From contig CAWEXD010000006.1 of NCBI GenBank assembly GCA_963812945.1, positions 62,001 through 126,000 of the forward strand: a stretch of 64,000 nt of DNA, written 5' to 3'. This document shows, in pieces, positions 18,985-46,733 of the stretch. The notes below the pieces were generated by a model. It was given only the letters and a program-made list of their open reading frames with translations. It made no database searches and was not told the origin of the DNA. How positions within the stretch are numbered: the stretch's first letter is position 1; every line of letters begins with the position of its first letter. The DNA is from DASRDR01 sp963812945 [NCBI: uncultured Candidatus Rokubacteria bacterium] (GTDB taxonomy: Bacteria > Methylomirabilota > Methylomirabilia > Rokubacteriales). A program made the position numbers and the translations under genes.

Positions 18985-20436
18985 ATGCGCGCGCCCGGGG
19001 CGATCCTCCTGGTCTCGTGCTACGAGCTGGGCCACCAGCCGCTTGCCGTCGCCTGGCCCGCGGCGTTCCTCCAGGCGCGAGGCTACGCCCCGGCGGTCAT
19101 GGACGTGTCCGTCGAGCCCTTCGACGCCGACAAGGTGAGGCGCGCCCGGGTCGTCGCCGTGTCGGTGCCGATGCACACGGCTCTCCGGGTCGGCGTCGCC
19201 GTGATCGGGCGCGTGCGCGCGGTGAACCCCGCCTGTCACGTCGTCGCGTACGGACTCTACGCGCAGCTGAACCGCGAGTACCTCCTCGCCCACGGCGTGG
19301 ACTCGGTGATCGGCGGCGAGGCGGAGGCGCCGCTGTCGGCGCTCGTCGAGGCGCTCGAGACCGGCACCGGCCAACCGGCGGTCGGCGTGGGGACGGCGGC
19401 CCGCCCCGCGGCACCTCATCTCGCCCGGCTTCCGTTTCCGGTCCCGAGCCGGGCGGGGCTGCCGTCGCTCAAGGAGTACGCGCGGCTCGAGCGCGACGGG
19501 CGGCACGAGCTGGTCGCGTACGTCGAGGCGAGCCGCGGCTGCAAGCACCTCTGCCGGCACTGCCCGATCCCGCCCGTGTACGGGGGCCGCTTCTTCGTCG
19601 TGCCGCCGGACGTCGTGCTGGCGGACGTCCGCCAGCAGGTCCTGGCCGGGGCGACCCACGTCACGTTCGGCGATCCCGACTTCCTCAACGGGCCGCGGCA
19701 CGCGCTCGCCGTGGCCCGGGGCCTCCATGCGGCGTTCCCGGACGTGACCTTCGACTTCACGGCGAAGGTCGAGCACCTGCTGCGGCACCGGGCGCTCCTG
19801 CCGGAGCTCCGGGCGCTCGGCTGCGCGTTCGTGGTGTCGGCCGTGGAGTCGCTGAGCGACGCGGTGCTCCAGCACCTCGACAAGGGTCACACGCGGGCCG
19901 ACGTCCAGACGCTGGTCTACCTCATGCGCGAGGCGGGCATCGCGCTCCGGCCCACCTGGGTGGCGTTCACCCCGTGGACGACGCTCGGCGACTACCGGGC
20001 GATGCTCGACTTCGTCCTCGACGAGGGCCTTCTGGATCACGTGGACCCCGTGCAGTACTCGCTCCGGCTGCTGGTGCCGCCGGGCTCGCTCCTGGCCGGA
20101 CATCCCGCCATGGCCCCGCATCTCGGCCCGCTGGTCGAGGACGCCTTCTCCCACGCGTGGACGCACCCGGACCCGCCCATGGATGCCCTCCAGGCCGAGG
20201 TCGCCCAGGTCGTCCTGGCGGCGGCCGAGGCGCATGCGGACGAGGCCGTGACGTTCGACCGGGTGCGGGCTCTCGCCGACGCCGTGGACGGAAGCCCCGC
20301 CCGCCCGCTCCCGGCCCGGCTGTCGCAGCCCGATCGGGCTCGCCCGCCGCGCCTGACCGAGCCCTGGTTCTGCTGAGCGGAGCCTACCGAGGGCCAGTTG
20401 GCCCTCCGCGGACGGCCGGTCGGGAGCGCGCTCTGA
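18985..20436 (+). CDS. Radical SAM selenoprotein with B12-binding-like domain and CUAEP tail
   Basis: 483 residues if UGA at 20374-20376 is read as selenocysteine (Sec464). Residues about 1-125 look like a cobalamin-binding Rossmann domain; 170-420 form a radical SAM barrel with the 4Fe-4S motif CKHLCRHC (Cys186, 190, 193) and GDPDFLN. The tail reads EPWFC-Sec-AEPTEGQLALRGRP and ends at TGA 20434-20436. A CUAEP/CCAEP tail defines a radical SAM family as I recall it. A 7-bp perfect hairpin with its loop 19 nt past the UGA supports recoding. Conventional calling would stop at 20376 and lose 20 residues. A NifU-like gene follows at 20533. Substrate unknown. Confidence 0.85.
20389..20406 (+). promoter_or_regulatory. 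Putative bacterial SECIS hairpin
   Basis: GAGGGCC (20389-20395) pairs perfectly with GGCCCTC (20400-20406) around the loop AGTT. The loop starts 19 nt after UGA 20374-20376, within the usual 16-37 nt window for SelB-dependent bSECIS elements, and has G in its second position, as is typical. It lies inside the extended reading frame and would code for EGQLAL. Confidence 0.75.
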
Positions 20437-20532: not shown

Positions 20533-20820
20533 ATGGCGGAAGAGACCACGCTCAAGGACAAGGTGCAGGAGCTGCTGGAAACGGCCATCAACCCGGCGGT
20601 GGCGGGTCATGGTGGCTACATCGAGCTGATCGACGTCAAGGACACGACGGCCTACATCCGGATGTCGGGTGGCTGCCAGGGGTGCGGCGCCGCGGACGTC
20701 ACGCTCAAGGCCGGCATCGAGCGGATGATCTTCGAGGAGATCCCGGAGATCACCGAGGTCCTGGACACGACCGACCACGCCTCGGGCTCGAACCCCTACT
20801 ACGCCCCGTCCAAGGCCTGA
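20533..20820 (+). CDS. NifU-family Fe-S scaffold protein
   Basis: A 95-residue protein made only of the NifU C-terminal domain, which carries or delivers Fe-S clusters. It has the conserved GGYIEL segment and cluster-binding CxxC in GGCQGCGAAD. ATG 20533 is preferred over the overlapping GTG 20530; GGGAGGT precedes both. It starts 96 nt after the selenoprotein radical SAM gene, and a role in maturing that 4Fe-4S enzyme is plausible but is inference. The first inverted-repeat element begins 3 nt after its stop. Confidence 0.9.
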   Translation: MAEETTLKDKVQELLETAINPAVAGHGGYIELIDVKDTTAYIRMSGGCQGCGAADVTLKAGIERMIFEEIPEITEVLDTTDHASGSNPYYAPSKA

Positions 20821-20822
20821 CC

Positions 20823-20895
20823 GGGGTCAGGCTTTGACTTCTTAACAATTTGGGGGACCGCCTCGCAAACTGTTTAGAAGTCAAAGTCTGACCCC
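20823..20895. repeat. GGGGTCAG inverted-repeat element, copy 1
   Basis: Starts GGGGTCAGGCTTTGACTTC and ends with the near reverse complement GAAGTCAAAGTCTGACCCC. Arms are about 28 bp with a few mismatches (TTAACAATTT/AACTGTTTA inner portions). Copies 2 and 3 are at 34485 and 38016. Size, symmetry and intergenic placement match REPIN-type elements mobilised by RAYT transposases; no RAYT gene is in the window. The GTG of the ATP-grasp gene begins at its last base pair. Confidence 0.85.
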
Positions 20896-22185
20896 GTGCT
20901 GCGCCTGCTGCTCCTGATCCCCACGACCACCTACCGGACCGAGGCCTTCGTCCAGGCGGCGGCGAAGCTCGACGTCGAGATGGTCGTGGCCTCGGAGCGC
21001 CCGAGCGTCCTCGAGGCGGCGCTCCCGGACAACCTCCTGACGCTCGACTTCGGGGACCCCGGGAAGAGCGCGCGGGCGGTCGCGGAGTTCGCCCGCCGGC
21101 ACCGGGTGGACGCGGTGGTTCCCGTCGACGACCGCACCACGGTGGTCGCGGCGGCTATCGCGGAGCGGCTCGGCCTTCGCACGAGCCCGCTCGCCGCCGT
21201 CCAGGCGACCCGGAACAAGCACCGGATGCGGGAGGCGTTCGCCCGGGCCGGTGTCCGGTCCCCGGGCTACACCCTCCTCCACGTCACCGACGATCCGGAG
21301 GCGGCCGCCGAACCTGTCACGTATCCGTGTGTCCTGAAGCCGACGATCCTCGCCGGCAGCCGGGGCGTGATCCGGGCCGACGACCCGCGCGAGTTCGTCG
21401 CCGCCTTCCGGCGGATCGCGGCGATCCTGGCGGAGCCGGACCTGACGGCGCTCGAGGGGGTCCACGAGGTGCTGGTCGAGGACTTCATCCCCGGGCGCGA
21501 GGTGGCGCTCGAGGGTCTTCTCGTCGGCGACGAGCTCCACGTCCTTGCCCTCTTCGACAAGCCGGATCCCCTCGACGGCCCCTACTTCGAGGAGACGATC
21601 TACGTCACGCCGTCCCGGCTGCCCGCCGACACGCAGACCCTGATCGCGGCCGAGGCGCGCTGGGCGGCGCGGGCGCTCGGGCTCACCGAGGGCCCGGTGC
21701 ACGCGGAGCTCCGCGTGAACGAGCGGGGGCCGTGGGTCGTCGAGATCGCCGCGCGGACGATCGGCGGGCTCTGCTCGCGGACGCTCCGGTTCGGCGCGGG
21801 GATCACGCTCGAGGAGCTGGTCGTGCGCCACGCCCTCGGGATCGAGCAGGACTCGCTCGAGCGCGAGGGCCCGTCGGCGGGCGTCATGATGATCCCCATC
21901 CCCGGCGGCGGGGTGTTCCGGGCGGCCCGGGGCCGCGAGGCGGCCCGGGCGGTGCCCGGGATCGAGGACGTGGTCATCAGCGCGCACCCCGGCCAGGAGC
22001 TGGTCCCGCTTCCGGAAGGCTCACGCTACGTCGGCTTCATCTTCGCCCGCGCGGCGTCGCCCGAGGCCGTGGAGAAGGCGCTCCGCGGGGCGCACCGCTG
22101 CCTCGAGTTCGACGTCGACCCGTCGCCGACGGCGCCGGCCACGCCGAGCCCCGACCACTCGTCCATGGAGGAGCCCCGCGCGTGA
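20896..22185 (+). CDS. ATP-grasp domain protein (carboxylate-amine/thiol ligase type)
   Basis: A 429-residue ATP-grasp enzyme, resembling carbamoyl-phosphate-synthase-like or BtrJ-type ligases that activate a carboxylate by phosphorylation. N-terminal Rossmann-like region to about 100 (VDAVVPVDDR), ATP-grasp from about 105: NKHRMREAFARAG, YPCVLKPTILAGSRGV (ATP-binding Lys), VLVEDFIPGREVALEG and the metal-binding HAELRVNERGPWVVEIAAR. A C-terminal domain of about 100 residues follows. GTG 20896 sits on the edge of the repeat, so the start is not certain. Its end overlaps the dehydrogenase start by 4 nt. Substrate unknown. Confidence 0.85.
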   Translation: MLRLLLLIPTTTYRTEAFVQAAAKLDVEMVVASERPSVLEAALPDNLLTLDFGDPGKSARAVAEFARRHRVDAVVPVDDRTTVVAAAIAERLGLRTSPLAAVQATRNKHRMREAFARAGVRSPGYTLLHVTDDPEAAAEPVTYPCVLKPTILAGSRGVIRADDPREFVAAFRRIAAILAEPDLTALEGVHEVLVEDFIPGREVALEGLLVGDELHVLALFDKPDPLDGPYFEETIYVTPSRLPADTQTLIAAEARWAARALGLTEGPVHAELRVNERGPWVVEIAARTIGGLCSRTLRFGAGITLEELVVRHALGIEQDSLEREGPSAGVMMIPIPGGGVFRAARGREAARAVPGIEDVVISAHPGQELVPLPEGSRYVGFIFARAASPEAVEKALRGAHRCLEFDVDPSPTAPATPSPDHSSMEEPRA

Positions 22186-33653: not shown

Positions 33654-34499
33654 ATGGAGCCGCCGGCCGGCTTCCGCTACGTCGACGCCCACACGCACCT
33701 CCACCCGCCGCGCCTCTTCACCGCGATCCGCCGCTGGTTCTACGAGCACACGGACTGGAACGTCCGGGGGCCGAGCGAGCCGGACGACGTGGTGGCCGCC
33801 CTTCGCGCGGCCGGCGTCGAGCGCTTCGCGTTCTTCTCGTACGCGCACCGGCCCGGCATGGCGCGCGAGCTGAACCGATGGATCCGCGACACGGCCGTTC
33901 GGTTCCCGGACGGGATCCCGCTCGGTACCGTCCACGCCGGGGACGAGGATCCGGGCGCGGTCGTCGACGAGGCGTGCGGGACGTGGGGGCTCCGCGGCCT
34001 GAAGATCCACATCCAGGTGCAGCGCTTCCACCCGGACGACCCGCGGATGTGGCCCGTCTACGCGCGGCTGGTCGAGCTCGGGCGCGTCCTCGTGATCCAC
34101 GTGGGGACCGGGCCCCACACCAACGAGCTCACGGGGCTGGCCCGGTTCGCGCGGGTCCTCGAGGCGTTCCCGGGCCTCCGGGCGTCGATCTGCCACATGG
34201 GCGCGTTCGAGACGCGCCTGGCGCTCCTGCTCCTCGACCGCTTCCCGAACCTCCGCCTCGACACGACCATGGCGCTGACGCGGGCGTCGACCCCGTACAC
34301 GGGGATCGACCCCGGCGTCGTGCGGGACGGGGACCTGGTCCGCCACGCCGACCGGATCCTCTTCGGCAGCGACTTCCCGAACCTGCCCTATCCCTACGAG
34401 GAGGAGCGCCGCGACCTCTGGGCGCGCGATCTCCCGCTCGCCGTCTACCAGCGCATCTTCCGCGACAACGCCCTCGCCTTCTTCGGGGTCAGACTTTGA
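33654..34499 (+). CDS. Amidohydrolase family protein (ACMSD-like TIM barrel)
   Basis: A 281-residue metal-dependent hydrolase or decarboxylase of the amidohydrolase_2 group. Metal-site residues visible: HTHLHPP at about 11-15, KIHIQVQ, the barrel His in VIHVGTGPHT, ASICHMG, and the conserved Asp in ILFGSDFP. The last four residues, GVRL plus stop, are encoded by the left arm of inverted-repeat copy 2, so the element has replaced or supplied the gene's end. Substrate unknown. Confidence 0.85.
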   Translation: MEPPAGFRYVDAHTHLHPPRLFTAIRRWFYEHTDWNVRGPSEPDDVVAALRAAGVERFAFFSYAHRPGMARELNRWIRDTAVRFPDGIPLGTVHAGDEDPGAVVDEACGTWGLRGLKIHIQVQRFHPDDPRMWPVYARLVELGRVLVIHVGTGPHTNELTGLARFARVLEAFPGLRASICHMGAFETRLALLLLDRFPNLRLDTTMALTRASTPYTGIDPGVVRDGDLVRHADRILFGSDFPNLPYPYEEERRDLWARDLPLAVYQRIFRDNALAFFGVRL

Positions 34500-34559
34500 C
34501 TTCCGGACATCTCCCGACGCAGCGCGTTGCCAATTGTCCCGGAGTCAAAGTCTGACCCC
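34485..34559. repeat. GGGGTCAG inverted-repeat element, copy 2
   Basis: Arms GGGGTCAGACTTTGACTTCC and its reverse complement enclose a GC-rich centre; the outermost 19-20 bp are perfectly complementary. It lies between convergent genes. Each arm, read inward, encodes Gly-Val-Arg-Leu-stop, so the amidohydrolase (plus) and the ABC permease (minus) both terminate inside it. As a perfect hairpin it could also terminate transcription from both sides. Confidence 0.85.
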
Positions 34560-38015: not shown

Positions 38016-38099
38016 GGGGTCAGGCTTTGACTTTTAAACAATTCGGCTCGGGGCTCGAGGTCGGGCGGGGAAATTGTTTAGAAGTCAAAGTCTGACCCC
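38016..38099. repeat. GGGGTCAG inverted-repeat element, copy 3
   Basis: 84-bp element with GGGGTCAGGCTTTGACTTTT at the left and GAAGTCAAAGTCTGACCCC at the right, and an AAACAATT/AATTGTTT inner pair as in copy 1. Copies 1 and 3 share these inner arms, while copy 2 has a different centre. The isochorismatase gene ends inside it with Gly-Val-Arg-Leu-stop. Confidence 0.85.
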
Positions 38100-45207: not shown

Positions 45208-45459
45208 CTAGGCTGATCGCCGCCCGGAGGGCGTGGTGCCCGTCCGCCGGGGCGGGTGCGCATCATCGTGTCGATTTGGGTAGCCGCGCGCCTCCGGCGC
45301 CTGGTCCGGCTGCGCCGGGGAAGGCGGCGGCCCGGGTGTGCGCGGCACCGCGAATATCAGAAGGAGGACCGCGGCGAGAAGGCCGAGGAGCGTCCAGCGA
45401 GCGATGCGGATCTGGCGCGGGGTGACCGTGGTCGATGGCGCGAAGGCGCGCCGTTTCAC
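45208..45459 (-). CDS. Small single-pass membrane protein
   Basis: An 83-residue protein of unknown function. GTG 45459 overlaps the MFS transporter stop as GTGA, suggesting coupled expression. One hydrophobic helix (about 22-40, WTLLGLLAAVLLLIFAVP) is followed by a Pro-rich polar tail of about 40 residues. No family recognised. Confidence 0.45.
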   Translation of the reverse strand: MKRRAFAPSTTVTPRQIRIARWTLLGLLAAVLLLIFAVPRTPGPPPSPAQPDQAPEARGYPNRHDDAHPPRRTGTTPSGRRSA

Positions 45460-46733
45460 TGCTCGAGCACCTGGTCTGCCCGGCCGCGGTGACGCTCGTA
45501 CCAGCGGGACATCATCTCCATCGCCGCCCACGCCGCGGAGGCGCTCGCGACCAAGGCCAGCTCCGCCGCGCGCCAGCCCCACCGATCCACCATCCACGCG
45601 AAGATCGTGGGTGACGCGGCGTTGACGAGCAGGATGGGGGTCGCAATCAGACCGAGCACCGCCCCGTAGCCGGTCGCGCCGAAGAGGGCCAGCGGCACGG
45701 CGCCGCGGACGATCGTGATCACGCCCTGCGACGCCCCCATGAGGAGCGTGAAGACGACGAGGGCGCTCAGGCTGCCGGCGGCGAAGACCAGCAGGACGAG
45801 GGACGCCGGCAGCACGCTGACGGCGATGCGGGCCACCGTCATCGCCCTGAGCTTCCGGCCGAAGGCGATCTCCACGACCCGGCCGCCGAACTGGGCCACA
45901 CCCTTGAGCGACGCCACCCAGACCGCCGTGGCGGTGGCCAGGCCCGCCGCCTGGAGGAGCGGCACCAGCTGGACCGAGACCACGCCGAACACGAACCCGT
46001 TGAGCGACATGATGAGGGCGAAGAGCGCGATGCCCACCGACCGGGCGCGTCCGTGGAGCGCCGGCCCTTCGGGGGCCTCCGCGGCGGCCCGCGCGGTGCC
46101 CTGGGCCGCGTCCACGGTCTCCCGGCGGGCGAGACCCAGCCAGTGAAGGGGCAGGCAGACCACGAGGTTGATCAGGGCGAAGAGGCCGAGCGTCTGCCGC
46201 CAGCCGACGGCCTCGTTGACGAGATGACCGAGCACCCAGAACACCGAGGAGGCGAAGGCCCCGAACAGCGTCAGGTAGGAGATCGCGAGGCGTCCCCGCG
46301 ACGGCGCCACCTGGACGAGGGCCGCGAACGCGGCGTCGTACAGGGTGAGCCGCATCCCGGCTCCGAGGTAGGCCCACGCCGCGAGATACGCGACCTGGCT
46401 GCGCACGTGGGCCAGCGCGAACAGCCCCGAGGACAGAAGGAGGGTGCCGAGCGTCATCACGGCACGTCCGCCGTACCGGTCGATCGCGCGGCCGACCGTC
46501 GTCGACACGAGCCCCATGGTGAGGAGGGCGACCGTGAAGCCGAGGAAGACGAACCCGCGGCTCCAGCCGGTGTCCGCGCTGATCGGGCCGGCCAGGACGC
46601 CCAGGCAGTAGAAGCTGGTCCCCCAGGCGGTGATCTGCGTGACGCCGAGCGCGCAGACGGCGGCCACCATCGGGTCGGTGAACCACGCGCGCGATCGGCC
46701 GGGGAGTTCGGCGGGACGGAGGACAGGGGTCAC
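45456..46733 (-). CDS. MFS transporter
   Basis: A 425-residue major facilitator protein with 12 predicted helices. The loop between helices 2 and 3 carries GRAIDRYGGRAVM, the typical MFS motif, and the second half repeats it as GRVVEIAFGRKLRAM. Resembles the oxalate/formate-antiporter-like or monocarboxylate-type group; the substrate cannot be told. The second MFS gene at 48609 belongs to a similar group. Confidence 0.88.
   Translation of the reverse strand: MTPVLRPAELPGRSRAWFTDPMVAAVCALGVTQITAWGTSFYCLGVLAGPISADTGWSRGFVFLGFTVALLTMGLVSTTVGRAIDRYGGRAVMTLGTLLLSSGLFALAHVRSQVAYLAAWAYLGAGMRLTLYDAAFAALVQVAPSRGRLAISYLTLFGAFASSVFWVLGHLVNEAVGWRQTLGLFALINLVVCLPLHWLGLARRETVDAAQGTARAAAEAPEGPALHGRARSVGIALFALIMSLNGFVFGVVSVQLVPLLQAAGLATATAVWVASLKGVAQFGGRVVEIAFGRKLRAMTVARIAVSVLPASLVLLVFAAGSLSALVVFTLLMGASQGVITIVRGAVPLALFGATGYGAVLGLIATPILLVNAASPTIFAWMVDRWGWRAAELALVASASAAWAAMEMMSRWYERHRGRADQVLEQ

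What the first reader, a model, noticed from the sequence alone, without database searches (positions are those of the whole stretch)
20371..20436. In-frame UGA gives a radical SAM protein a CUAEP tail: probable selenoprotein
Reading through TGA at 20374-20376 gives Cys-Sec-Ala-Glu-Pro followed by 17 more codons to TGA at 20434. The frame is otherwise unbroken. A perfect 7-bp hairpin, GAGGGCC-AGTT-GGCCCTC, has its loop 19 nt past the UGA, as bacterial SECIS elements do. I recall a radical SAM family defined by a CUAEP or CCAEP tail; this sequence fits it exactly. The conserved Cys-Sec pair could bind a metal or take part in catalysis. The reaction is unknown.
Basis: partly seen in the sequence, partly recalled or inferred. 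Interest (0 to 1): 0.92.

Follow-up and report, generated by a model that had tools for sequence, protein, structure and literature searches.

The report
Radical SAM selenoprotein, known NCBI family
A bacterial gene seems to end early at a UGA stop, but its relatives, a conserved RNA hairpin and selenium-insertion genes in related genomes show that the UGA very probably encodes selenocysteine near the end of a radical SAM enzyme; NCBI already names this family, but what the enzyme makes is unknown.

Summary
ORF 18985-20376 encodes a B12-like/radical SAM protein whose last codon before an in-frame UGA is Cys (20371-20373). After the UGA, 19 open codons starting Ala-Glu-Pro run to a second UGA (20434-20436). 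The upstream piece scores 674 bits against NCBIfam NF040546, 'CUAEP/CCAEP-tail radical SAM (seleno)protein' (cut-off 500), so this is a new member of a family already named as a selenoprotein. I tested that name. In 80 relatives (the best of 487) the codon here is TGA in 62 and Cys in 18, nothing else. A hairpin at a fixed place after the UGA is present in 62 of 63 TGA copies (window included), 5 of 18 Cys copies and about 8% of other TGAs, with compensatory changes. SelA is over cut-off in 58 of 61 TGA-copy genomes and 7 of 18 Cys-copy genomes. The host looks like a Rokubacteria relative; its own genome is not held. Function is open: nearest named kin is the arsinothricin enzyme ArsL; common neighbours are an ATP-grasp ligase and Fe-S/iron genes. 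A 2026 table of 119 selenoprotein families does not list it.

The parts
18985..20373 (+). Upstream piece of the radical SAM gene, 463 codons, cut before the in-frame TGA
   Evidence: NF040546 673.9 bits, cut-off 500; Pfam B12-binding and Radical_SAM
19009..19344 (+). B12-binding-like domain (residues 9-120); no DxHxxG motif
   Evidence: PF02310 34.3 bits; DxHxxG in 0 of 79 family rows
19525..19944 (+). Radical SAM domain (residues 181-320)
   Evidence: PF04055 40.3 bits
19540..19563 (+). CxxxCxxC motif, Cys186, Cys190, Cys193
   Evidence: Cys in 79 of 79 family rows at each of the three places
20371..20373 (+). Codon of Cys463, directly before the UGA
   Evidence: Cys in 79 of 79 rows; all 80 loci end in Cys here
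20374..20376 (+). In-frame TGA, probable selenocysteine codon
   Evidence: TGA 62, TGC 13, TGT 5 of 80 relatives
20377..20433 (+). Piece after the TGA, 19 codons beginning Ala-Glu-Pro
   Evidence: coding-like variation
20389..20406 (+). SECIS-like hairpin: 7 pairs, loop AGUU at 20396-20399, 19 nt after the UGA
   Evidence: -13.7 kcal/mol for this stretch alone; place and pairing kept across the family
20434..20436 (+). Second in-frame TGA, probable end of translation
   Evidence: the second stop is TGA in 36, TAA in 18, TAG in 9 of 63 TGA copies
20533..20820 (+). NfuA-type (NifU-like domain) Fe-S protein gene
   Evidence: PF01106 85.8 bits; a relative lies in 27 of 81 loci
20896..22185 (+). 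ATP-grasp protein with L-amino acid ligase C-terminal domain
   Evidence: PF13535 108.6 bits, PF18603 54.1 bits; a relative lies in 48 of 81 loci

Best explanation
The gene is a member of NCBIfam NF040546 and encodes a radical SAM selenoprotein. The UGA at 20374-20376 is decoded as selenocysteine by SelB and tRNA-Sec, guided by the hairpin at 20389-20406; translation then ends at the second UGA. Shown here in the family: the TGA/Cys codon census, the hairpin and its compensatory changes, and the co-occurrence with Sec machinery. Inferred: that the window's own host has the machinery, and that selenium is really there. The confidence given is for this decoding. Enzyme mechanism, inferred, at about 0.3: the CxxxCxxC Fe-S cluster cleaves SAM; the invariant Cys plus selenocysteine of the short C-terminal tail hold a thiophilic acceptor atom, to which a SAM-derived group is added as in the related ArsL; the amino-acid-like product is then coupled by the ATP-grasp ligase encoded next door, while the NfuA-type protein serves the Fe-S cluster.
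For: NF040546 at 673.9 bits against cut-off 500. TGA 62 and TGC/TGT 18 of 80 at this codon. Coding-like variation after the UGA that ends at the second stop. Hairpin at the fixed place in 58 of 59 distinct TGA rows and 5 of 18 Cys rows, slid centres at most 13 of 59; other TGAs 93 of 1242 and 155 of 2000. Covariation score 0.713 against shuffled mean 0.221 (A2) and 0.290 against 0.148 (A1), 0 of 500 shuffles reaching either. SelA over cut-off in 58 of 61 TGA-copy and 7 of 18 Cys-copy genomes, SelB 16 of 17 and 4 of 14, tRNA-Sec of 55 bits or more 52 of 61 and 7 of 18; Fisher p values. In L007's genome selA, selB and a tRNA-Sec lie within 5 kb. TGA and Cys states change at least 10 times on the tree. 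For the mechanism: ArsL is by far the next best model, 305 bits against 49 for the third; only Cys186, 190, 193 and 463 are Cys in 79 of 79 rows; ATP-grasp and NfuA-type neighbours.
Against: The window's genome is not held; the 64 kb holds no SelA or SelB match at E 1e-3 and no tRNA-Sec. Taken alone, the window's hairpin does not beat synonymous redraws (p 0.155, and 0.565 by fold energy) or dinucleotide shuffles (z -1.22 and -0.93). Over the family, the single-copy stem test reaches p 0.05 in only 23 of 63 TGA copies (3 of 18 Cys copies), and by fold energy in 9 of 63 against 6 of 18. Two of the five pair measures do not exceed the shuffles in A1, and one in A2. The kinship-controlled test of TGA against SelA has five supported pairs and is not significant (median p 0.25). 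Rfam shows no SECIS in the window. For the mechanism: ArsL's own cut-off is not reached (305 of 450 bits), and no arsenic family turned up among the ten neighbour clusters scanned.
Confidence: 0.93

Rival explanations
1. The UGA is an ordinary stop: the protein ends in ...WFC, and the conserved hairpin is a terminator or another RNA element.
For: The window's hairpin alone is not unusual for its composition; UGA is a normal stop in these genes (36 of 63 second stops).
Against: 18 of 80 relatives have a Cys codon in place of the TGA and run on into the same Ala-Glu-Pro tail; variation after the UGA is coding-like up to the second stop and not beyond; the hairpin is mostly missing in the Cys copies (5 of 18).
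Confidence: 0.03
2. The family is a selenoprotein, but this copy is a relic in a host that has lost the Sec machinery.
For: The host genome is not held, and the window itself carries no Sec genes.
Against: The copy is open up to the TGA, with tail and hairpin present. Its nearest rows on the tree are Rokubacteria, and SelA is over cut-off in 23 of 24 genomes whose loci are titled Rokubacteria or Rokuibacteriota.
Confidence: 0.02
3. On mechanism only: it is a selenoprotein, but the Cys-Sec tail is a redox arm that returns electrons or a hydrogen atom to the radical site, in an Fe-S or iron-related role, with no alkyl transfer to a thiophilic atom.
For: Neighbours of iron and Fe-S type: NfuA-type 27 of 81 loci, Fe(2+)-trafficking 17, CDGSH 14, SUF-type in 4 to 6 loci each.
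Against: The single commonest neighbour is the ATP-grasp ligase, 48 of 81 loci, which suggests a small-molecule product; ArsL is the next best model.
Confidence: 0.3

Closest known systems
NCBIfam NF040546, CUAEP/CCAEP-tail radical SAM (seleno)protein
   Same: 673.9 bits against cut-off 500, matched from residue 7 to the last residue before the UGA; Cys-TGA-Ala-Glu-Pro tail present in the DNA
   Different: Nothing seen; the last 11 profile positions lie beyond the cut and were not tested
ArsL, arsinothricin radical SAM enzyme (NF040542)
   Same: Second best model, 305.2 bits over nearly its whole length (1-406 of 423); CxxxCxxC motif
   Different: Below its cut-off of 450 bits; no arsenic family among ten neighbour clusters scanned. 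The chemistry of ArsL is from passages of PMC8552651
AprD4, OxsB, TsrM, MgmA (B12-type-fold radical SAM enzymes)
   Same: Fold of the Cys relative L026: Z 27.0, 25.9, 25.3 and 25.3
   Different: 17-18% identity; no Cys-Sec tail is named for them in that listing
Other radical SAM selenoproteins: TIGR04167 and TrsS (NF045646)
   Same: Radical SAM plus predicted selenocysteine, listed in the 2026 table
   Different: Neither model is among the 17 NCBIfam matches of this protein at E up to 0.01

Membership tests
NF040546 CUAEP/CCAEP-tail radical SAM (seleno)protein | Score over the curated cut-off of 500 bits | tested here: met
   673.9 bits with the piece cut before the TGA
NF040546 CUAEP/CCAEP-tail radical SAM (seleno)protein | Tail of Cys, then Sec or Cys, then Ala-Glu-Pro | tested here: met
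   Cys codon, TGA, then AEP in the DNA; same layout in relatives
Bacterial selenoprotein gene | In-frame UGA that matches Cys in relatives | tested here: met
   TGA 62, Cys 18 of 80
Bacterial selenoprotein gene | Bacterial SECIS limits as read in PMC13188914: loop 3-9 nt, stem 4-16 bp, G in the first two loop places, 16-37 nt from the UGA, -7.5 kcal/mol or lower | tested here: met
   Window: loop AGUU, 7 pairs, 19 nt, -13.7 kcal/mol. The limits are loose: met by 53 of 63 TGA copies, 4 of 18 Cys copies, and 249 of 1242 and 301 of 2000 other TGAs. Limits from passages
Bacterial selenoprotein gene | SelA, SelB and tRNA-Sec in the host | tested here: inconclusive
   Host genome not held; present in most relatives with a TGA copy
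Bacterial selenoprotein gene | Selenium in the native protein | not testable with these tools
   Needs labelling or mass spectrometry
ArsL (NF040542) | Score over the curated cut-off of 450 bits | tested here: not met
   305.2 bits
Radical SAM superfamily | Radical SAM domain with CxxxCxxC | tested here: met
   PF04055 40.3 bits, cut-off 29.5; motif in 79 of 79 rows
Cobalamin-dependent radical SAM enzymes | Bound cobalamin | tested here: inconclusive
   B12-binding Pfam match 34.3 bits, cut-off 32.1, but DxHxxG in 0 of 79 rows (that this motif marks many cobalamin domains is recalled)

The most novel reading that the evidence does not exclude
The family is a widespread, uncharacterised selenoenzyme that uses its Cys-selenocysteine tail as a substrate-holding arm, joins a SAM-derived amino-acid group to an unusual element, and passes the product to the adjacent ATP-grasp ligase, which builds a peptide-like metabolite not yet known.
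Probability: 0.15. Interest if true: 0.75.

Novelty: new member of a known kind. Interest (0 to 1): 0.4.

Why it matters
NCBIfam names the family as a (seleno)protein, but the table of 119 prokaryotic selenoprotein families of 2026 does not list it, and no paper in the held library contains CUAEP, CCAEP, NF040546 or rSAM_CUAEP. The comparison here gives independent support for Sec decoding in records from many phyla, and points to an ATP-grasp ligase and Fe-S/iron genes as the place to look for the function. Annotation that stops at the UGA loses the residue that is probably the working end of the enzyme.

Tried and rejected
Filing it as ArsL: nearest named kin, but below cut-off. A search for ArsL in 193 genomes of the phylum of G012 gave none over cut-off, so the two tails could not be compared. 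Of the 22 neighbour clusters listed I scanned ten; none was an arsenic family; the other twelve were not scanned.

A change of genetic code: rejected, because 36 of the 63 TGA copies use TGA as their second stop.

Rfam shows no SECIS in the window at gathering scores, only a tRNA-Gly. [quoted passage not shown]

Distance from tail to Fe-S cluster: the model of the Cys relative L026 is good (mean pLDDT 89.8; 73 for residues 461-470), but its coordinates are not in the script box, so this was not measured.

Literature: the two Haft papers on selenoprotein families are not held, so I cannot say whether they print this family. Seen: PMC13188914 (passages, and parts 1 and 2 of 3 of section 7, which hold the whole of Table 1); PMC8552651 (passages); PMC9312934 (passages); PMC12013277 (five terms sought in the text, no hit). 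All others in search listings only.

Limits of the counts: one search found 487 relatives and kept the best 80, so the census leans to copies close to the window. L051 (partial) and L058 (broken frame) were left out of the tree. Rows went into A1 or A2 by the loop register seen, which favours pairing; one search gives the ungrouped count with slid controls. L048 and L050 lie in one genome and count once in the genome tallies. Only 31 of the 79 genomes were given to the SelB search. SelA, SelB and tRNA-Sec tallies by TGA or Cys were counted by hand from the tables; the 55-bit line for tRNA-Sec is my choice, to set aside tRNA-Ser-like matches.

Full report
What is there. The + strand ORF 18985-20376 starts with ATG and ends ...RLTEPWFC before TGA at 20374-20376. 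The piece after it, read on its own, is 19 codons beginning Ala-Glu-Pro and ends at TGA 20434-20436. The upstream piece carries a B12-binding-like domain (residues 9-120) and a radical SAM domain (181-320). It matches NCBIfam NF040546, 'CUAEP/CCAEP-tail radical SAM (seleno)protein', with 673.9 bits against a cut-off of 500; the match reaches profile position 457 of 468 at residue 463, where the piece is cut.

Relatives. A scan of genome contigs found 487 relatives and kept the best 80. In all 80 the matched piece ends in Cys. The next codon is TGA in 62, TGC in 13 and TGT in 5. The next three residues are AEP in 75 of 81 copies, window included. On a tree of 79 rows (two rows dropped: L051 partial, L058 broken frame) the fewest TGA/Cys changes is 10; 60 label shuffles gave a mean of 15.6 and a minimum of 12. 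Repeated exchange between UGA and Cys codons, and no other codon, is what is expected of a selenocysteine site. The window falls in a starred set of 21 rows whose other 20 rows are all titled Rokubacteria or Rokuibacteriota.

Coding constraint. Among the 63 TGA copies, codons 1-10 after the UGA differ at rates of 0.169, 0.292 and 0.450 at the three codon positions; the ten codons before it differ at 0.187, 0.161 and 0.469. After the second stop the rates are 0.72 at all three. The second stop is TGA in 36, TAA in 18 and TAG in 9 of 63, so TGA keeps its stop meaning in these same genes.

The hairpin. In the window, 20389-20406 forms seven pairs around the loop AGUU, 19 nt after the UGA, -13.7 kcal/mol when folded alone; in longer stretches the pairs next to the loop stay and the outer pairs vary with the length given. 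A stem of at least 5 of 6 pairs at this fixed place (loop of 4 or 5) is present in 58 of 59 distinct TGA rows and 5 of 18 Cys rows; sliding the centre by up to 9 nt gives at most 13 of 59. Among other TGAs the same test is met by 93 of 1242 in the window and 155 of 2000 sampled from the loci. The stems differ in sequence (28 different six-base 5' arms in 59 rows). The covariation score is 0.713 against a shuffled mean of 0.221 in the loop-5 group (A2) and 0.290 against 0.148 in the loop-4 group, which holds the window (A1), with 0 of 500 shuffles reaching either. In the Cys copies it is 0.238 against 0.153, reached by 7 of 500, with 48% of cells paired (A3). Measures that did not stand out: pairs with a change on both sides (145 of 500 shuffles reach it in A2, 51 of 500 in A1) and further pair types in A1 (61 of 500). 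The published limits for bacterial SECIS elements, as I read them in passages of PMC13188914, are met by the window's element; in a scan they are met by 53 of 63 TGA copies, 4 of 18 Cys copies, and 249 of 1242 and 301 of 2000 other TGAs.

Against the hairpin: taken singly, the window's copy does not beat synonymous redraws (p 0.155; by fold energy 0.565) or dinucleotide shuffles (z -1.22 and -0.93). Over the family the single-copy stem test reaches p 0.05 in 23 of 63 TGA copies and 3 of 18 Cys copies, and fold energy in 9 of 63 and 6 of 18. The case rests on the family, not on the one sequence.

Sec machinery. No genome is held for the window. The 64 kb carries no SelA or SelB match at E 1e-3, queried with the two proteins of L095, and no tRNA-Sec. 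In relatives' genomes, SelB is over cut-off in 16 of 17 TGA-copy and 4 of 14 Cys-copy genomes (31 of the 79 genomes were given to that call). SelA is over cut-off in 58 of 61 and 7 of 18 (all 79 genomes). tRNA-Sec at 55 bits or more is found in 52 of 61 and 7 of 18, the same seven Cys-copy genomes as for SelA. Fisher p values are 9.5e-7 for SelA, 3.5e-4 for SelB and 2.3e-4 for tRNA-Sec, without regard to kinship. The kinship-controlled test of TGA against SelA has five supported pairs (about three go the same way) and is not significant. The three TGA-copy genomes without SelA over cut-off each show another part: a SelA fragment at the start of a contig (G033), SelB and tRNA-Sec (G006), tRNA-Sec (G079). 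In L007's genome selA, selB and a tRNA-Sec with anticodon TCA lie within 5 kb.

What the protein may do. Only four columns are Cys in every one of 79 rows: 186, 190 and 193 of CxxxCxxC, and 463 just before the UGA. The tail is thus as constrained as the SAM cluster site. DxHxxG, recalled as a mark of many cobalamin domains, occurs in 0 of 79 rows. A model of the Cys relative L026, built from 17 natural Cys copies (mean pLDDT 89.8), is closest in fold to AprD4 (Z 27.0), OxsB (25.9), TsrM and MgmA (25.3 each). By profile the second best family is ArsL, 305 bits against its cut-off of 450, and the third has 49 bits. ArsL is proposed to move a 3-amino-3-carboxypropyl group from SAM to As(III) (PMC8552651, passages).

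Neighbours. An ATP-grasp protein of L-amino-acid-ligase type lies in 48 of 81 loci and an NfuA-type protein in 27 of 81; in the window both follow the gene on the same strand. An Fe(2+)-trafficking protein occurs in 17 loci, a CDGSH protein in 14, DUF169 in 7, and SUF-type genes in 4 to 6 each. Contig ends cut many flanks, so these are lower bounds, and I made no control for chance neighbours. Putting ArsL kinship and the amino-acid ligase together, I take alkyl transfer to a thiophilic atom held by the tail as the likeliest chemistry, at about 0.3; a purely redox tail is about as likely. Both are inference.

Novelty. The gene is a new member of a named family. Table 1 of the 2026 review (119 families, read) lists no NF040546 and no CUAEP radical SAM protein, and four name variants gave no paper in the library. 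The two papers most likely to describe it are not held, so I do not claim that it is unpublished.

Noticed in passing
window 20823-20895, 34485-34559, 38016-38099: A dispersed palindromic repeat (GGGGTCAGRCTTTGACTTCT in inverted arms) occurs three times in the window; 6 arm matches with up to 3 mismatches, 0 expected. One copy lies between the NfuA-type and ATP-grasp genes.
   Followed up: partly
L048 and L050: Thermomicrobium sp. CFH 73360 has two copies of the TGA gene on two contigs of one genome, with identical protein pieces.
   Followed up: no
L056 7372-7407, L060 4640-4675: Two Cys copies with tail CCAAP carry an 11-pair stem right after the codon although their genomes have no SelA match over cut-off; a remnant of a SECIS, or a terminator.
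   Followed up: no
L058 6001-7388: A Cys copy whose reading frame is broken (stops in all three frames) in a genome that has SelA and SelB over cut-off; decay or assembly error.
   Followed up: partly
window 45459-46733 (-): MFS transporter similar to the arsenite exporter ArsK, 262 bits, below its cut-off of 400; about 25 kb from the gene.
   Followed up: no
L018, L025, L032: Records titled Gemmatimonadetes carry TGA copies; L018 groups with the Rokubacteria-titled rows L010, L012 and L017, by transfer or by mixed bins.
   Followed up: no
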